Assembly: GCA_944363755.1 (NCBI GenBank)
Contig: CALVVC010000025.1
Span: 1-12,735 of the forward strand
Source of the DNA: an uncultured Bacilli bacterium
GTDB lineage: Bacteria; Bacillota_I; Bacilli_A; RF39; UBA660
Direction of reading: 5' to 3'
DNA length: 12,735 nucleotides
A program made the position numbers and the translations under genes. The notes under the pieces are model-generated. The model was given only the letters and a program-made list of their open reading frames with translations. It did no database searches and was not told the DNA's origin. Positions 3,650 through 11,584 of this stretch are shown here, one piece after another (within the stretch, counting starts at the first letter, position 1; every line of letters begins with the position of its first letter).

Positions 3650-3672
3650 ATTAAAAAATGTATCTTGTTCGA

Positions 3673-3701
3673 TTGATTATCTATATCATATGTGTTAATA
3701 T
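3673..3701 (+). promoter_or_regulatory. Candidate extended -10 promoter for the micro-gene
   Basis: TTGATT (3673-3678) is followed after 17 nt by TAATAT (3696-3701), which is preceded by TGT, an extended -10 element. Transcription would begin near 3708-3711 and give a leader of about 70 nt before the micro-gene ATG. Matches are 4/6 in each box plus the TG dinucleotide. Confidence 0.45.
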
Positions 3702-3732
3702 ATCTGTTAGGAATACTTAGTAATGGGTGTTT

Positions 3733-3772
3733 GCTTCTTTCTAGCAACTGTTTTAGGGGGTTAGAAAGGAGT
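3733..3772 (+). promoter_or_regulatory. Leader hairpin that buries the micro-gene Shine-Dalgarno
   Basis: GCTTCTTTCTAGC (3733-3745) pairs with GTTAGAAAGGAGT (3760-3772) over 13 contiguous positions, three of them G-U. The right arm contains the whole AAAGGAG ribosome site (3765-3771). In the folded RNA the site would be closed to the ribosome. SD occlusion of this kind is a known feature of many type I toxin messengers; that it operates here is inference from base pairing. Confidence 0.65.
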
Positions 3773-3779
3773 CTTATTT

Positions 3780-3848
3780 ATGAGTAAAAAAGATTTTCTG
3801 GTAGTAATACTATTGATTATCATTATACTTTTAATACTATATAAATAG
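3780..3848 (+). CDS. 22-residue hydrophobic peptide, type I toxin-like
   Basis: The ORF has 22 codons from ATG to TAG. The peptide starts MSKKDFLVV, continues with an uninterrupted run of Ile, Leu and Val, and ends in LYK. It is a single predicted membrane helix flanked by lysines, so insertion in the cytoplasmic membrane is likely. A strong ribosome site, AAAGGAG, lies 8 nt upstream, and the gene has its own candidate promoter and terminator. Size and build resemble known short membrane toxins of type I systems such as Ibs, but I recognise no specific family by sequence. It stands alone between two minus-strand genes and reads opposite to both. The alternatives are a non-toxic small membrane protein or a chance ORF. 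The SD, its occluding hairpin and the 5'-3' complementarity argue against chance. Confidence 0.65.
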   Translation: MSKKDFLVVILLIIIILLILYK

Positions 3849-3879
3849 CACCCTTAACATCAATTGTGTAAGGGTGTTT
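3849..3879 (+). terminator. Hairpin directly after the micro-gene stop
   Basis: CACCCTTA (3849-3856) pairs perfectly with TAAGGGTG (3869-3876), with three further pairs beyond a bulged G. Only TTT follows, so it would be a weak terminator on the plus strand. It starts one base after the stop codon. It may serve as a stability element, or as the 3' end of an antisense RNA read from the right. Confidence 0.45.
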
Positions 3880-3891
3880 CCCAAATTTATT

Positions 3892-3934
3892 GAGGCAAAT
3901 ACCCATCTACCAAACTAGGTATTCCTCTTTTTTT
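3892..3934 (+). terminator. Strong intrinsic terminator of the micro-gene transcript
   Basis: GAGG plus AATACC (3892-3903, with a 2-nt bulge) pairs with GGTATT plus CCTC (3918-3927). The 10-bp stem is followed at once by seven T residues (3928-3934). This would end a transcript of roughly 225 nt started near 3709. Its left arm is also one side of the 15-bp 5'-3' complementarity. Confidence 0.65.
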
Positions 3935-3937
3935 ATA

Positions 3938-3960
3938 ATATGTAAAATTTCTTTACATAT
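3938..3960. repeat. 9-bp perfect palindrome downstream of the membrane gene
   Basis: ATATGTAAA (3938-3946) and TTTACATAT (3952-3960) form a perfect inverted repeat with a 5-nt loop. There is no T-run on the minus-strand side, so it is a poor terminator for the gene ending at 3978. It overlaps a possible minus-strand -10 (rc of 3935-3940) and could be an operator or a 3'-end stabilising hairpin. Confidence 0.4.
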
Positions 3961-3977
3961 ACATATTACCATAAATA

Positions 3978-4499
3978 TTACTTTCTAGCAAGTAGCTTTA
4001 ATAATCTAAAACTATTGACTGGTCTATATAAAAGAAATAAAAACGAAGTCATTATAGTACTTGTAAACAAAAGAAAATTAATAGTAGTAATGTTTTGGTA
4101 TAATATTAAATTTAAAACTGTTAAGATAAAGAAAGCAATTAGTAAGATAAAGCATTTTATTCTAAATGATTCATTCTTCTTATGCATTTCTCTTAGTTTA
4201 TATAAAGAAACTTTCTTACCTTTCTTTTTAAAGATGTTTTTAATAGTAGAGTTTGCAATCAGAGTTATAACTACACCAAAGATTATGCCAACTAAGACTA
4301 TAAATAGATATGAATATGGTAAATGATAACTAAAGCAAGCGAAAGCAAGATAGAAAATTAAGCCAATAATAATACCAATTACTCCTACTATATTACAATT
4401 ATTATTTTTATTATCACTAGTATAAACTAACTTATCATTAAAATTATAATGGTAGTTTATATTCTTTTTAGTATCTTTATATACTAATACATAATTCAT
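3978..4499 (-). CDS. Four-helix membrane protein, unknown family (paralogue A)
   Basis: The protein has 173 residues and no family I recognise. A conserved soluble N-terminus (MNYVLVYKDTKKNINYHYNF) precedes four predicted membrane helices at about 37-58, 63-83, 114-134 and 140-158. The loop between helices 2 and 3 is Lys/Arg-rich (KNIFKKKGKKVSLYKLREM), so it should be cytoplasmic, with both termini also inside. No catalytic motif is visible. Its ATG overlaps the TAA of the upstream gene by one base (TAATG), a clear sign of translational coupling. It is a close paralogue of the protein at 6477-7001, sharing long runs such as NDKLVYTSD, LPYSYLFI and ITLIANSTIK. The two gene starts and the sequence just upstream are similar at DNA level too. 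Confidence 0.85.
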   Translation of the reverse strand: MNYVLVYKDTKKNINYHYNFNDKLVYTSDNKNNNCNIVGVIGIIIGLIFYLAFACFSYHLPYSYLFIVLVGIIFGVVITLIANSTIKNIFKKKGKKVSLYKLREMHKKNESFRIKCFILLIAFFILTVLNLILYQNITTINFLLFTSTIMTSFLFLLYRPVNSFRLLKLLARK

Positions 4500-5323
4500 T
4501 AGTTACCATCCCTTTTATTTTTTCTACTACCATTAAGTAAAATATATTGCCTTTCTTTAGGAGTATAATTTTTTTCTAAAACATCATTAATTTTAAGTAA
4601 GATGTTAGTCATTTTTTGTTTTCTAGTATCAATATCACCACTAGTTTTAATATTATTAAATTTATTTATTAAAGTACAAATGTTACCATCAAATTCTTCC
4701 TCACTAGTAGCATTGTCTATATTAAGTGATACTTTATTTTCATTTGCATCTATAAATAGTTCTTTATAAGTATCTGGTAATATTCCTTCTCTCTTATATA
4801 TTCTTTCAACAATAGGGTATTTAATAATATCATAAAAATCACGATTATACTCCATAGCATATTCGTACAAAGCTGTTAATGTTTCGTAGAGATAATCTGT
4901 AATTTTAGGAGTTTTTCTACTGTATACCCATTCACCAATATTTTCTGATACAATTTTACCATTTGAAAATGACATTACAAAGCTTTGAATTACATGGTTA
5001 TTATTTGTTACAAAATATTTGCAATATGATAAACTAAAGCTATTATCTGATGAGAGAGTTAATTTAATATATTCACCTTCGTAAAAAAATTCGTTATTAT
5101 TATATATATCTACATCATTATTAATTAGGATATTATTATTTTCTATATAAACACCTTTCAGATCATCTTTTGCCGTACTTAACTCTATACAATCTGGACA
5201 TGGGGCATTAAAGAGAACACCATCTTTATCATCAAGCAAAGAAAGCAATATATCACTTGCTATGGGATTATCCTCTAATTGTTTGCACCTACGTTTTAAC
5301 AATTGTTCTAAATTATATTCCAT
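4499..5323 (-). CDS. Hypothetical soluble protein with CPDC motif
   Basis: The protein is 274 residues and I do not recognise the family. The N-terminal region is helical and basic (LEQLLKRRCKQLEDN). A CPDC pair, a possible redox or metal site, sits at 42-45. The middle (about 58-135) looks beta-rich with many Asn, and the C-terminal half looks helical, ending in a Lys/Arg-rich tail. No signal peptide or membrane helix is seen. The frame can start at GTG 5332, but AGGTGAT just upstream is spaced for ATG 5323, which I use. A strong promoter precedes it. It overlaps the start of the downstream membrane gene by one base, so the two are probably made together and may act together; that link is inference. 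Confidence 0.8.
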   Translation of the reverse strand: MEYNLEQLLKRRCKQLEDNPIASDILLSLLDDKDGVLFNAPCPDCIELSTAKDDLKGVYIENNNILINNDVDIYNNNEFFYEGEYIKLTLSSDNSFSLSYCKYFVTNNNHVIQSFVMSFSNGKIVSENIGEWVYSRKTPKITDYLYETLTALYEYAMEYNRDFYDIIKYPIVERIYKREGILPDTYKELFIDANENKVSLNIDNATSEEEFDGNICTLINKFNNIKTSGDIDTRKQKMTNILLKINDVLEKNYTPKERQYILLNGSRKNKRDGN

Positions 5324-5358
5324 TTTAATCACCTATTTCCTTCATAAATTTACTTTAT

Positions 5359-5387
5359 ATTATATATTTAAATATCGCAAAAAGCAA
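5359..5387 (-). promoter_or_regulatory. Strong promoter for the CPDC gene / membrane gene pair
   Basis: On the minus strand TTGCTT (5382-5387) is followed after exactly 17 nt by a perfect TATAAT (5359-5364). It lies about 36 nt upstream of the ATG at 5323. It is one of the best promoter matches in the window. Its -35 box touches the 26-bp tandem repeat in the leader of the divergent adenosine deaminase gene. Confidence 0.65.
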
Positions 5388-5438
5388 TTAAAAAATTGAT
5401 TTCTAGCAAGGGATTAAAAAATTGATTTCTAGCAAGGG
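5387..5438 (+). repeat. Perfect 26-bp tandem duplication in adenosine deaminase leader
   Basis: Two identical 26-bp copies (5387-5412 and 5413-5438) begin ATTAAAAAATTG and end in TTTCTAGCAAGGG. They sit about 50 nt upstream of the adenosine deaminase start and next to the -35 box of the divergent promoter. Each copy offers a TTGATT hexamer on the plus strand, but no convincing -10 follows at normal distance. Confidence 0.9.
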
Positions 5439-5487
5439 ATGGACAAGATTAATTAAAGTAATGTATATTAATTACAGGAGGATAAAT

Positions 5488-6480
5488 ATGGAAATTAAAG
5501 ATATTAAGAAAATAGTTTTACATCTTCATCTAGATGGTTCGCTTGATTTAGATCTTGCTAAAAGATATGCTAAAGAAGATGGTTATAATTTAACAGATGA
5601 AGAAATAGTTAAAGAATTACAAGTAGATAAAGATTGTCATAATTTAAATGACTATTTAGAAAAATTTGCTCTTCCCTCTTCTTTATTACAAACTAAAGAA
5701 AGATTAGAAGAAACTACTTATACTTTATTTAAAAAGTTATCTATGGAAAATGTTATCTATGCAGAAATAAGATTCGCTCCTATTAAACATATTGAAAAAG
5801 ATCTTAGTTTAGATGATGTAATAACAAGTGTGATAAAAGGAATGGAAAAAGCTAAAGATGAGTTTAATATTTTAGGAGGCATTATTTTATGCTGTATGAG
5901 AGATAGTAGTAAAGATGATAATATTAAAATAGTAAACTATGCTAAGAAATATTTAGGTAAAGGTGTAGTTGCGATTGACCTAGCAGGTGCAGAAAGTATT
6001 TATAAAACTAAAGACTTTAAATATATCTTTGATATGTGTAGGAATCTAAAAATTCCTTATACTATTCATGCAGGGGAAGCAGATGGTAAAGGAAGTATAA
6101 ATAGTGCTTTAGACTTTAAAACTAAAAGATTAGGTCATGGAATAAGATGTATAGAAGATAAAGATACTATGGAAAGAATAATTAATGATAGAATTCTTTT
6201 AGAAATATGTCCTACTAGTAACTTTCAAACAGAAGCGATTAAAGGAAAACATCCATTAGAATATTTATATAATAATAATATTTTAATATCTATAAATACT
6301 GATAATGATACAGTTTCTAATATAAATATTGAAGAAGAATATAGAAATGTTTTAAATAATACTAATTTAACTATTAAGGATTTAATAAAATGTAATTATA
6401 ATTCTATTCCCTATTTATTTACAACAGATGATATTAAAAATAAATTAAAAGAAATAATAGAAAAAGAAAACTTCATTTAA
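5488..6480 (+). CDS. add: Adenosine deaminase
   Basis: The enzyme hydrolytically deaminates adenosine and deoxyadenosine to inosine forms in purine salvage; it is cytoplasmic and zinc-dependent. It has 330 residues, typical for the family. Zinc and catalytic motifs appear in order: HLHLDG with H12 and H14, RFAP at 95-98, DLAGAE at 164-169, IHAGE with H194 and E197, RLGHGI with H217, CPTSN at 241-245, and NTDN with D272. The residue after the zinc Asp is Asn instead of the more usual second Asp; I believe some bacterial branches share this. ATG 5488 has AGGAGG 6 nt upstream; the frame is open from TTG 5422, but that start lacks support. It reads opposite to its neighbours, and its stop lies in a terminator shared with the convergent gene. 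A 6-methyladenine or other deaminase specificity cannot be excluded. Confidence 0.93.
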   Translation: MEIKDIKKIVLHLHLDGSLDLDLAKRYAKEDGYNLTDEEIVKELQVDKDCHNLNDYLEKFALPSSLLQTKERLEETTYTLFKKLSMENVIYAEIRFAPIKHIEKDLSLDDVITSVIKGMEKAKDEFNILGGIILCCMRDSSKDDNIKIVNYAKKYLGKGVVAIDLAGAESIYKTKDFKYIFDMCRNLKIPYTIHAGEADGKGSINSALDFKTKRLGHGIRCIEDKDTMERIINDRILLEICPTSNFQTEAIKGKHPLEYLYNNNILISINTDNDTVSNINIEEEYRNVLNNTNLTIKDLIKCNYNSIPYLFTTDDIKNKLKEIIEKENFI

Positions 6481-6492
6481 TGTGAAGTTTTC
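6466..6492. terminator. Bidirectional terminator holding both convergent stop codons
   Basis: GAAAACTTCA (6466-6475) and TGAAGTTTTC (6483-6492) are perfect reverse complements, giving a 10-bp stem and a 7-nt loop. Both stop codons lie in the loop: TAA of adenosine deaminase (6478-6480) and TAA of the convergent membrane gene (complement of 6477-6479). The minus-strand RNA is followed by a T-rich run (complement of 6461-6465). The plus-strand side has a weaker T-rich tail. Confidence 0.8.
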
Positions 6493-7001
6493 ATTAGTTT
6501 TACTAGTTTTAAATTGTTAATTGGTCTATATAACGTAAAAAGAAATGTAGTCATGATAATACTTGTAAATAATAGAAAATTAATAGCATTTTCATTTTGA
6601 TAGAAAAGTAAATGTAAAATAGAAAGAATAATAAAAGCTAGTGTTAAGATAAAATATTTTATTCTAAAAGATTTATTTTTATTATACATTTTTTCTAATT
6701 TTTTTAAAGAAAGTTTCTTACCTTTTGTTTTAAATATATCTTTAATAGTAGAGTTTGCTATTAATGTTATAACTATACCAAAGATAATACCTATTAATGT
6801 AATAAATAAATATGAATACGGTAAATAGTAACTAATTATTGCAAAAGTTAGATAGAAGATGAAACCTATCATAATACCAATTACTCCAAATATATTACAT
6901 CTATTATTTTTACTATCACTAGTATAAACTAACTTATCATTAAAGTTATAATAATAGTTTATATTCTTATTAGTATCTTTATATATTAAGACATAATCCA
7001 T
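6477..7001 (-). CDS. Four-helix membrane protein, unknown family (paralogue B)
   Basis: The protein has 174 residues and is a close paralogue of the protein at 3978-4499. The N-terminus is almost the same (MDYVLIYKDTNKNINYYYNF), there are again four membrane helices, and the loop between helices 2 and 3 is basic (FKTKGKKLSLKKLEKM). No known family or catalytic motif is evident. I chose ATG 7001 over ATG 7010. AAAGGA is 9 nt from the former and directly abuts the latter, and 7001 aligns with the paralogue's start. It follows mutS by 20 nt and is likely its operon partner. The last codons form one arm of the bidirectional terminator. Association with two unrelated operons suggests a mobile or general membrane role; no function can be given. 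Confidence 0.87.
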   Translation of the reverse strand: MDYVLIYKDTNKNINYYYNFNDKLVYTSDSKNNRCNIFGVIGIMIGFIFYLTFAIISYYLPYSYLFITLIGIIFGIVITLIANSTIKDIFKTKGKKLSLKKLEKMYNKNKSFRIKYFILTLAFIILSILHLLFYQNENAINFLLFTSIIMTTFLFTLYRPINNLKLVKLMKTSH

Positions 7002-7021
7002 TAGTACCATTCCTTTTCCTT

Positions 7022-9603: not shown

Positions 9604-10602
9604 CTATCTTTTCATCAATTTAAGAAGCCTTTTATTAATTTCTTTATTTCCTGTTTCATAATTTGCAAACATATAATTATTACCAGTATAATATCCACTA
9701 TTACGTCTAAAATCATCATCAATTAAATGATAATAAGCAGTAATTAGAGCATCTATTTCTATTTCTTTTTTTCTTCTCTCATGATTGTTTTTAACATCCA
9801 TAACACTTAATTTATTATAAATACTACTAATGTTTATTCCACTTAATAATTCAATCTCATAAAAAGCACATCTAATGGAAAATAGTAATAATTCTTTATT
9901 TTTACTATCGCTATTTAATACCCTCTGCTGCTGATTATATAATTTTTCATTCCATAGTTTAATCTTCCAAAGAGGAGCATAATTACATTGTAGTTCATCA
10001 TTACTAAATATATTTTTATCATGATTTTTAGCAACATAAGCATCATCATCAATATACACTGCTATTAATTTATTTATTGTTTTTATATCTACTATATCCT
10101 TATTTAAATTATCTTTATTTTTTAAATATAATACTTTTATTAAAGGTATATCATCTTCATTATAATCATTAGGATTATAATTATATACATTAACTATACT
10201 ATCATTTAAAAGCATATTTTCTTTATCACTTAACTCACTACTATCTAAATCTGTAATAGCATCAGTTAAATAATTATTTTTCCTAACAAAGAAATGAAAT
10301 TCATCTATTAAAAAAGGAAAAGCTTCACTTTTTATAAAGTCATCATATAAACTTTCAAGACCTTTCTCTAATTCATCTATCTTTGTTTGATTAAGTTTAT
10401 ATCTAATAAAATCTATATTACAATTAATATCATCAAAAATCTTTTTATCACTACTACTTAAATTATTATAAAAACTTATTGTTTTAGTTAATTTATCATC
10501 TTGTAAAAGTCCATTTATTATATTTTTAGTTTCTTCTATTCTATCTTTTATATCTTTATAATTACTATAATAATATTTAAATTCATCTTTATTGTACTGC
10601 AT
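9604..10602 (-). CDS. Hypothetical helical protein, tandem paralogue 2
   Basis: The protein has 332 residues, unknown family, acidic and Asn-rich, and predicted mostly helical, with no membrane segment or signal. It aligns along its length with the protein encoded just upstream (10616-11584). DDIPLIKVLY is at about 150 in both. A conserved C-terminal half has LLLFSIRCAFYEIELLSG, DALITAYYHL with FRR, and FANYETGN followed by INKRLLKLM. No enzyme motif is evident. AAGGAG at 10609-10614 directly follows the previous stop and is 6 nt from ATG 10602 (3 nt from ATG 10605), so I use 10602. mutS starts 11 nt after its stop, so it is surely co-transcribed with mutS. A link to repair is possible but unproven. 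Confidence 0.85.
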   Translation of the reverse strand: MQYNKDEFKYYYSNYKDIKDRIEETKNIINGLLQDDKLTKTISFYNNLSSSDKKIFDDINCNIDFIRYKLNQTKIDELEKGLESLYDDFIKSEAFPFLIDEFHFFVRKNNYLTDAITDLDSSELSDKENMLLNDSIVNVYNYNPNDYNEDDIPLIKVLYLKNKDNLNKDIVDIKTINKLIAVYIDDDAYVAKNHDKNIFSNDELQCNYAPLWKIKLWNEKLYNQQQRVLNSDSKNKELLLFSIRCAFYEIELLSGINISSIYNKLSVMDVKNNHERRKKEIEIDALITAYYHLIDDDFRRNSGYYTGNNYMFANYETGNKEINKRLLKLMKR

Positions 10603-10615
10603 CATTAACTCCTTA

Positions 10616-11584
10616 TTAATATAAATTTTTCATCTTTAGTATCTTACTATTTATAATGGGATTTGCTGTTTCAAAAGTAGCATAACAAATATCATTATCG
10701 TTATCAAAGTATTCACATTCTTTTCTAAAGTTAATATTAGTTAAATTATAATAAGCTTTAACTAAAGCATCTTTAAAGTAATCTTTATCACTTTCACTAA
10801 TATTACTTTCTTCTATTTCTTTTAAAAGAGCAGTAACTCTTTTACCTTCAAGCATAGATACCTCGTATTTAGCAGTATCAATTAAATATAAAAGTAAATA
10901 CTTAAAAGAACTATCACTATTTTTAATTTCTAAAGAAGTATTTAAAATAGATTCTTTTAATTCTTTAATAAGGGGACGTCTATTATCTTTATAAGTTAAA
11001 TGTTTTTTATCTAAAGTATGAATTCTTTTGACATTATCTATAATAAAATTTTGAACATATATAACAGAGTCTTTATTAGAATAATCATAATCTTTATTTT
11101 TTAATCTATCATAAATTACTTTAATTAATGGTATATCATCAACTGTAAGTTCATCATCAAATCCATACAAGTCATTTATAATATTTTGAATGAATAATTT
11201 AATTTCATTACTAACTTTTAAATCTTTTGTACTCTCACTTGTTATAGCATTATAAGTGTCTATATCATCTTTTATATAAATATTTATAAAATCTTCTTTA
11301 TTTAATGAAAAGAAATCACTAGTTGCAATAGCTAAAAATAAAATCATTTTATCTCTTTTATATTTTAAAATATTAGTATTACTATAATAATATTTTAAAA
11401 TATCACTATCACTATAAATATCTCTAAAACTTTCTTTTTGTTCTTCATTTAAACTAAAATACAATTTACCTACTTTAGTTTTAATTAATTTATTATATAA
11501 TATATCTTTTGTTTCCATCTCTTGTTTAATAAGAGCATTTATTACTTTATATTTTTTATAATATTCTTCTAACTTTTCTTCCAT
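10616..11584 (-). CDS. Hypothetical helical protein, tandem paralogue 1
   Basis: The protein has 322 residues, unknown family, charged and mostly helical. It is a diverged paralogue of the next gene. Shared blocks are DDIPLIKVIY (149-158), LLLYLIDTAKYEVSMLEG (about 230-247), DALVKAYYNL followed by FRKE (about 272-289), and YATFETANPIINSKILKM near the end. No catalytic or nucleic-acid-binding motif is visible. AGGAGG lies 7 nt before the ATG. It is the first gene of the operon that continues through the second paralogue, mutS and a membrane protein, and is transcribed divergently from rarA. The order rarA / unknown pair / mutS suggests, but does not show, a role in genome maintenance. Confidence 0.85.
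   Translation of the reverse strand: MEEKLEEYYKKYKVINALIKQEMETKDILYNKLIKTKVGKLYFSLNEEQKESFRDIYSDSDILKYYYSNTNILKYKRDKMILFLAIATSDFFSLNKEDFINIYIKDDIDTYNAITSESTKDLKVSNEIKLFIQNIINDLYGFDDELTVDDIPLIKVIYDRLKNKDYDYSNKDSVIYVQNFIIDNVKRIHTLDKKHLTYKDNRRPLIKELKESILNTSLEIKNSDSSFKYLLLYLIDTAKYEVSMLEGKRVTALLKEIEESNISESDKDYFKDALVKAYYNLTNINFRKECEYFDNDNDICYATFETANPIINSKILKMKNLY

What the first reader, a model, noticed from the sequence alone, without database searches (positions are those of the whole stretch)
3673..3934. Undescribed candidate type I toxin locus between nusB and a membrane gene
Seen: a 22-codon ORF for a single hydrophobic helix with flanking lysines. It has an AAAGGAG site at ideal distance, an extended -10 promoter, a 13-bp leader stem (3733-3745 with 3760-3772) that covers the whole ribosome site, and a 10-bp terminator with seven T residues. 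Known: SD occlusion in a short structured mRNA encoding a tiny membrane peptide is the hallmark of type I toxin genes. Inference: this is such a toxin, of a family I do not recognise.
Basis: partly seen in the sequence, partly recalled or inferred. Interest (0 to 1): 0.75.

Follow-up and report, generated by a model that had tools for sequence, protein, structure and literature searches.

The report
Order-wide family of hidden toxin-antitoxin genes
This stretch of a bacterial genome encodes a tiny hydrophobic peptide kept by selection, lies opposite a predicted silencing RNA, and is one of 21 related copies in the genome, likely members of an unrecognised family of toxin-antitoxin switches that was detected in most sampled genomes of its order.

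Summary
In detail: ORF, AAAGGAG site, extended -10, SD-occluding stem and T-run are where stated. But the locus is not solitary, and its other half was missed. It is one of 21 copies in its own 1.09-Mb genome; a model of its antisense half matches 34 of 35 genomes of its genus (Candidatus Onthousia), 214 of 288 sampled in its order, and 1 of 341 sampled in its class outside its family. On the opposite strand 77 of 77 assessable class-A copies keep an extended -10 and 75 a -35, and the hairpin after the stop codon has its T-rich tail on that strand, so a convergent antisense RNA of about 115 nt is predicted. The message's 5' and 3' ends pair, and their shared 'word' differs between peptide classes. 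The peptide is under purifying selection (pN/pS 0.15 to 0.49). Best reading: a new family of type I toxin-antitoxin loci without detected relatives among known families, working most like bsrG/SR4 with an AapA-like 5'-3' clamp. Transcripts, toxicity and neutralisation are untested.

The parts
3673..3701 (+). predicted toxin promoter: -35 TTGATT 3673-3678, 17-nt spacer, extended -10 TGT-TAATAT 3693-3701
   Evidence: sequence; -35 and -10 in 72 of 77 anchored class-A copies; not reported by the generic scan
3709..3737 (+). 5' arm of the predicted long-distance helix (anchor AGGAATAC and word GGGTGTTTGC)
   Evidence: inverted repeats I3/I4; MFE fold; class-matched pairing; anchor covariation; sense-strand bias
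3734..3771 (+). hairpin that occludes the Shine-Dalgarno site (3734-3745 with 3760-3771)
   Evidence: MFE fold; SD on average 0.22 unpaired in 141 copies
3765..3771 (+). Shine-Dalgarno AAAGGAG
   Evidence: sequence
3780..3848 (+). 22-codon ORF, hydrophobic peptide MSKKDFLVVILLIIIILLILYK (class A), candidate toxin
   Evidence: pN/pS 0.21 over 40 unique class-A sequences, 1.16 and 1.64 in the other frames
3849..3876 (-). hairpin after the stop codon, predicted terminator of the antisense RNA
   Evidence: T-richer tail on the antisense side in 28 of 32 evaluated copies; fold
3892..3934 (+). 3' arm of the long-distance helix (also a local terminator-like hairpin) and T-run 3928-3934
3842..3958 (-). 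predicted convergent antisense RNA (RNA II, about 115 nt; ends approximate), overlapping the toxin message from about 3842 to 3934
   Evidence: promoter and terminator signals; three hairpins, z -2.99, 2 of 200 shuffles as good (folded as 3841-3964)
3963..3991 (-). predicted antisense promoter: -35 TTGCTA 3991-3986, 17-nt spacer, extended -10 TGG-TAATAT 3971-3963
   Evidence: -35 TTG and extended -10 in 75 of 77 assessable class-A copies, extended -10 in 77 of 77; invariant columns in alignment A1 of 37 sequences

Best explanation
The locus is a repeated gene unit that encodes a conserved 22-residue hydrophobic peptide, and it most likely works as a type I toxin-antitoxin pair in which a predicted convergent antisense RNA silences the peptide's message. 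Shown: the unit recurs through the genus and order, the ORF is under purifying selection, the two message ends covary, and the opposite strand keeps promoter and terminator signals. Predicted: RNA I (about 3709-3934) folds with its Shine-Dalgarno site in a local hairpin and its 5' end clamped to its 3' end. RNA II (about 3956 to 3842, minus strand) is complementary to the 3' part, and its arm hairpin repeats the 5' arm of RNA I, so it can take the place of that arm on the 3' end and expose the duplex to RNase III. Inferred from known families: when RNA II runs short the message is translated and the peptide inserts in the membrane and slows or kills the cell. The word shared by the two arms differs between peptide classes, so distant classes such as A, B and C would not silence each other; copies within a class, and perhaps classes D, E and F, probably cross-talk.
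For: Copies: 21 model matches in the own genome, 34 of 35 genus genomes, 214 of 288 order genomes and 81 of 102 genera, against 1 of 341 class genomes outside the family (split counted from its table). Peptide: pN/pS 0.21 (A), 0.43 (B1), 0.31 (B2), 0.15 (C), 0.49 (D), 0.35 (E with F). Clamp: cognate arms pair at -34.1 kcal/mol on average, arms of different classes at -21.5; 7 of the 9 clamp pairs that RNAalifold predicts on 48 sequences have changes on both sides that keep the pair; the helix is stronger as sense RNA than as its complement in 47 of 48 copies; in the own genome the cognate mean of -34.5 lies below all 2000 permutations (lowest -28.3). Antisense unit: -35 and extended -10 in 75 of 77 class-A copies found with a query ending before that promoter; T-richer tail of the stop hairpin on the antisense side in 28 of 32. 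Site history: at nusB 2 of 27 loci with upstream sequence have lost the toxin's promoter and 5' half and keep the antisense unit.
Against: No transcript, toxicity or neutralisation data. A generic promoter scan misses both promoters. SD pairing is predicted to be the same with or without the 3' arm (0.22 against 0.21 unpaired), so folding does not show how the clamp or RNA II changes translation. RNAalifold's consensus on A2 pairs the 3' word with the hairpin after the stop codon, not with the 5' word, so the word helix rests on single folds and class-wise pairing energies. Energies do not separate classes D, E and F well, 12 of 80 5' arms pair better with some other-class 3' arm, and in the own genome only 8 of 17 pair best with their own. 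The ORF is not intact in 3 of 78 class-A copies; one copy (L095) keeps the ORF but its antisense promoter region is rearranged.
Confidence: 0.78

Rival explanations
1. The peptide is a small, non-toxic membrane regulator or stress protein whose message happens to be controlled by an antisense RNA.
For: Toxicity is untested; purifying selection fits any useful peptide.
Against: 21 matches in the own genome and up to 27 in the genus, several peptide classes on one RNA frame, decay or absence at the nusB site with the antisense part outliving the toxin part in 2 loci, and a structured message with the SD closed are, from general knowledge of type I loci, more typical of toxins than of housekeeping regulators.
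Confidence: 0.14
2. The unit is a selfish repeat (MITE-like) and the peptide is a passenger.
For: Dispersed copies; presence and absence at the nusB site; inverted arms.
Against: The conserved ends of the unit are two promoter regions; the inverted arms lie inside. The peptide and antisense signals are kept, the arms change together and the sense-strand helix is kept stronger. Two exact patterns had no match in viral contigs, the window copy none in phage records and one 36-bp match in plasmid records.
Confidence: 0.05
3. The RNAs are the functional part (for example a structured regulatory RNA) and the ORF is incidental.
For: Very strong RNA structure; some copies have lost the ORF start but keep the RNA II signals.
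Against: pN/pS well below 1 in the ORF frame and mostly near or above 1 in the other frames; 91 of 119 loci parse with an SD-preceded ORF.
Confidence: 0.03

Closest known systems
bsrG/SR4 and bsrE/SR5 (Bacillus subtilis)
   Same: Antitoxin and toxin message pair at their 3' ends, the message closes its own ribosome site, the antitoxin contacts the main helix of the message, and different toxins can sit on similar RNAs (passages of PMC6562991).
   Different: No Pfam relation of these peptides; peptides of 22-33 aa in the own genome; several classes and 21 matches in one 1.09-Mb genome.
par/Fst (pAD1)
   Same: RNA I of about 230 nt, convergent promoters, SD in a 5' stem-loop (passages of PMC7472228).
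   Different: par has DNA direct repeats crossed by both RNAs and a shared bidirectional terminator; here the arms are inverted repeats, the stop hairpin's T-rich tail is mainly on the antisense side, and RNA I is predicted to end beyond it.
aapA/IsoA (Helicobacter pylori)
   Same: Message of 225 nt (aapA3) held by a 5'-3' long-distance interaction, with SD-sequestering hairpins (passages of PMC6733600).
   Different: IsoA overlaps the 5' part of the message (recalled); here the antisense overlaps the 3' part, and removing the 3' arm is not predicted to open the SD.
CD2517.1-RCd8 and relatives (Clostridioides difficile)
   Different: Sequence relation was not tested directly; some of those lie on phage phiCD630-1 (abstract start of PMC7699646 in the listing), whereas no phage record matched here.

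Membership tests
type I toxin-antitoxin (functional kind) | short hydrophobic peptide under selection | tested here: met
   22 aa, GRAVY 2.07, net +2; class-A pN/pS 0.21
type I toxin-antitoxin (functional kind) | signals for an antisense RNA complementary to the toxin message | tested here: met
   (signals only; the RNA itself was not seen)
type I toxin-antitoxin (functional kind) | peptide toxic, and relieved by the RNA | not testable with these tools
   needs expression experiments
par/Fst | DNA direct repeats crossed by both RNAs | tested here: not met
   the 5' ends of the two RNAs are inverted repeats (I3, I4). One 11-nt direct repeat (D3, 3737-3747 and 3981-3991) has its second copy in the antisense -35 region, outside the predicted RNA II.
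par/Fst | shared bidirectional intrinsic terminator | tested here: not met
   T in the 8 nt after the stop hairpin: sense 2.3, antisense 5.3; antisense richer in 28 of 32, sense in 2
par/Fst | Fst-family peptide | tested here: not met
   no Pfam toxin family at E up to 1 for the window peptide and seven class representatives
bsrG/txpA group | convergent pair overlapping at the 3' ends | tested here: met
   predicted RNA II 3956-3842 and RNA I 3709-3934, from conserved signals
bsrG/txpA group | homologous toxin or antitoxin | tested here: not met
   no Pfam or Rfam match; no direct comparison with these sequences was made
bsrG/txpA group | antitoxin binding extends SD sequestration | tested here: inconclusive
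   window-type copy L009 goes from 0.33 to 0.02 unpaired when the 3' arm is cut off, but there is no family-wide shift
aapA/IsoA | 5'-3' long-distance interaction in the message | tested here: met
   (prediction with covariation in the anchor part)
aapA/IsoA | antisense RNA over the 5' region and ORF start | tested here: not met
   the conserved antisense unit lies over the 3' region; the feature itself is recalled

The most novel reading that the evidence does not exclude
One ancient two-RNA frame has been loaded with at least six classes of membrane peptide, each with its own matched pairing word, and has spread through most of a bacterial order, reaching twenty-odd loci per 1-1.5-Mb genome in one genus, so that one cell runs several parallel, mutually insulated toxin-antitoxin channels: perhaps the densest type I system yet seen and a built-in test of how antisense specificity diverges.
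Probability: 0.45. Interest if true: 0.85.

Novelty: new member of a known kind. Interest (0 to 1): 0.7.

Why it matters
Type I loci are reported from few phyla, a narrowness thought to reflect search bias (passages of PMC12390103). Here a covariance model of the antisense half finds a family that no tested library names in 214 of 288 sampled genomes of an order of small genomes. With many copies, several peptide classes and matched pairing words in one cell, it makes testable how antisense pairs diverge into separate channels, how many silenced toxins a small genome carries, and in what order toxin and antitoxin decay.

Tried and rejected
1) 'The clamp frees the Shine-Dalgarno site': I thought the 5' anti-SD would leave the SD for the 3' arm (note). 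Folding of 141 of 144 copies (start not located in 3) gave SD unpaired 0.22 with and 0.21 without the 3' arm; it was more open with the arm by over 0.2 in 8 copies and less open in 1. Dropped as a general rule.

2) 'Antisense -10 lost together with the toxin start' in the degenerate tandem copies (note): wrong. I had placed the antisense -10 too close to the arm; read by eye, the extended -10 of those copies is intact and only the T-run stretch is missing.

3) Strict one-to-one specificity: not supported within classes (8 of 17 in the own genome; 68 of 80 against other classes; classes D, E and F overlap in energy).

4) The first expression for the antisense promoter had the wrong spacer and returned 1 of 78; corrected. 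The first peptide grouping for pN/pS missed class A and mixed lengths; redone. In one search I read the minus-strand loci in the wrong orientation; put right.

5) Phage or plasmid carriage: two exact viral patterns without match, phage records no match, plasmid records one 36-bp match in a Fusobacterium record.

6) Literature: searches listed no title on this family (listings of at most 20 each). Three papers hold the word Onthousia; none of the titles concerns toxins, and the held part of PMC8035907 has no occurrence.

Rows dropped: one search parsed 91 of 119 loci; the rest lack the 5' part, lie at contig ends, were missed by the parser, or have a broken or degenerate ORF. One search used 80 of 83 arm pairs (L196, L202 and one unclassed left out). 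One search chose 50 of 144 copies less than 86% alike; one search used 48 (L260 and L301 dropped) and could evaluate the hairpin in 32; alignment A2 has the same 48 with the window's copy L001 in place of L009. One search examined 81 loci, all found through R1: 5 had no upstream sequence, and 64 gave an ORF after an SD-like motif and arm pairing of -26 kcal/mol or better. One search used the 30 held loci of 33 genomes with nusB; 3 of the 30 (L310, L319, L332) end too close to nusB to judge.

Full report
What is there. RNA 3708-3934 folds at -73.9 kcal/mol, z -6.94, 0 of 200 shuffles as good. The arms are inverted repeats.

It is a family. The DNA has two further near-full-length copies in its own 1.09-Mb, 146-contig genome and many in its genus. 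Two more places in the same genome share only the ends and carry another peptide, which revealed further classes on the same frame. By my grouping these are A (KKDFLIVILLIIIILLIIYR type), B (ending VPT and one more residue), C (KKDLLIS...), D (KTFIIKVLK...), E and F (KKD-type, 26-30 aa), and one own-genome copy (L256) fits none. A covariance model, R1, was built from 37 antisense-side sequences. It finds 21 matches in the own genome: 17 parse as complete loci, one has a broken ORF (C38), one is degenerate (C19), and two are cut by contig ends (C34, C51). It finds 34 of 35 genus genomes, with 0 to 27 matches each, and 214 of 288 order genomes in 81 of 102 genera, where stricter filters scored at most 13 candidates per genome. 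In a class sample of 395 genomes, 37 of the 54 listed as the family match and 1 of the other 341 does (I count the 54 from its table, whose unlisted rows follow the family's rows). E-values of R1 are rough (short calibration). The genus is Candidatus Onthousia: contigs DVKQ01000022.1 and DVHC01000037.1 have the lengths of G028:C96 and G008:C7; NCBI places it in Bacilli incertae sedis.

The peptide is real. pN/pS is 0.21 (class A, 40 unique sequences), 0.43 (B1, 14), 0.31 (B2, 5, no usable bootstrap), 0.15 (C, 13), 0.49 (D, 25) and 0.35 (E with F, 13). In the other two frames it lies between 0.61 and 3.31 where finite. The 17 own-genome peptides are hydrophobic (GRAVY 1.38 to 2.59) with net charge +1 to +6.

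The message clamps on itself. Cognate 5' and 3' arms pair at -34.1 kcal/mol on average, arms of different classes at -21.5; 68 of 80 5' arms prefer their own 3' arm to every other-class arm, 12 do not. Classes A, B and C stand apart; D, E and F overlap. On alignment A2 (48 sequences of all classes) RNAalifold predicts 17 pairs; 9 belong to the anchor part of the clamp and 7 of these have changes on both sides that keep the pair, though one pair is broken in 8 rows. Its other pairs do not show the word helix: it pairs the 3' word with the hairpin after the stop codon, which repeats the word. The helix is stronger as sense RNA than as its complement in 47 of 48 copies, p 4.7e-9, which places it in RNA I. 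Copies are related, so these counts are not independent events.

The other strand carries signals for an RNA. 78 class-A copies came from a query that ended before the antisense promoter. Of the 77 that can be assessed, 75 have a -35 TTG and an extended -10 of the form TGnTA at the right spacing, and all 77 the extended -10 (a loose pattern). After the stop codon a hairpin is followed by T-rich sequence on the antisense side: 5.3 against 2.3 T in 8 nt, antisense richer in 28 of 32, sense in 2. The stem is only modestly more stable on that side (-12.1 against -10.4, p 0.012, lower in 19 of 32). RNA II is thus predicted to start near 3956 and to form a 5' hairpin, an arm hairpin and the terminator hairpin. 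Its arm hairpin repeats the 5' arm of RNA I, so it can pair with the same 3' target.

One site through time. Of the 30 held loci around nusB (33 genomes have nusB), 27 have enough upstream sequence. R1 matches 11. By my reading, eight are intact, two (L313, L324) share a deletion of the toxin promoter, SD and ORF start with the antisense unit whole, one (L314) is an internal-deletion remnant, one more (L316) is a remnant without R1 match, and 15 show none. Toxin loss with antitoxin retention fits a toxin-antitoxin pair, but the two cases may be one event. L095 is a copy with an open ORF whose antisense promoter region has been replaced; another extended -10-like box lies there.

How it most likely works. 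Shown: family, selection, covariation of the anchor, conserved signals. Predicted: both RNAs and their folds. Inferred: as in bsrG/SR4 (passages of PMC6562991), RNA II meets the 3' part of the message, replaces the 5' arm there, keeps the SD closed and invites RNase III; when RNA II falls, the peptide is made and harms the membrane. Folding does not say that the clamp opens or closes the SD, so the exact switch is open.

What is known. The closest systems are bsrG/SR4, par/Fst (passages of PMC7472228) and aapA/IsoA (passages of PMC6733600). The locus works like them but I do not file it as a member of any: no direct repeats in both RNAs, no shared bidirectional terminator, antisense over the 3' part, and no family match near a cut-off. 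The literature searches listed no title on it.

Noticed in passing
3981-3992, 5400-5450: TTTCTAGCAAG, the antisense -35 end of the unit, recurs twice between 5400 and 5450. In G014 (L009) the copy directly abuts the adenosine deaminase gene, as if the two genes between (about 3993-5432) had been lost, or never gained, between these repeats.
   Followed up: partly
3978-4499 and 6477-7010: Two paralogous membrane proteins (73% identical over 170 residues) on either side of the adenosine deaminase gene; only sub-threshold DUF and Gpos_tandem_5TM matches for the first.
   Followed up: partly
9604-10605 and 10616-11584: Adjacent paralogues (30% identical) of 333 and 322 aa without a Pfam match near a cut-off.
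   Followed up: no
3-1265: Minus-strand protein of WG repeats (PF14903, ten stretches), cut by the window edge.
   Followed up: no
L040, L052, L060, L063, L097, L098, L125: A degenerate class-A-like copy without SD and with a TTG start lies in tandem before a class A or B copy in several genomes, its antisense extended -10 intact by eye; perhaps a stand-alone antisense RNA.
   Followed up: partly
3665-3675 and other copies: TTGTTCG(A/C)TTG, overlapping the start of the toxin -35, recurs in several classes and in other genera; possibly a regulator site.
   Followed up: no
L260 (G481:C32): The one R1 match outside the family in the class sample, close to a contig end: transfer or a misbinned contig.
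   Followed up: partly
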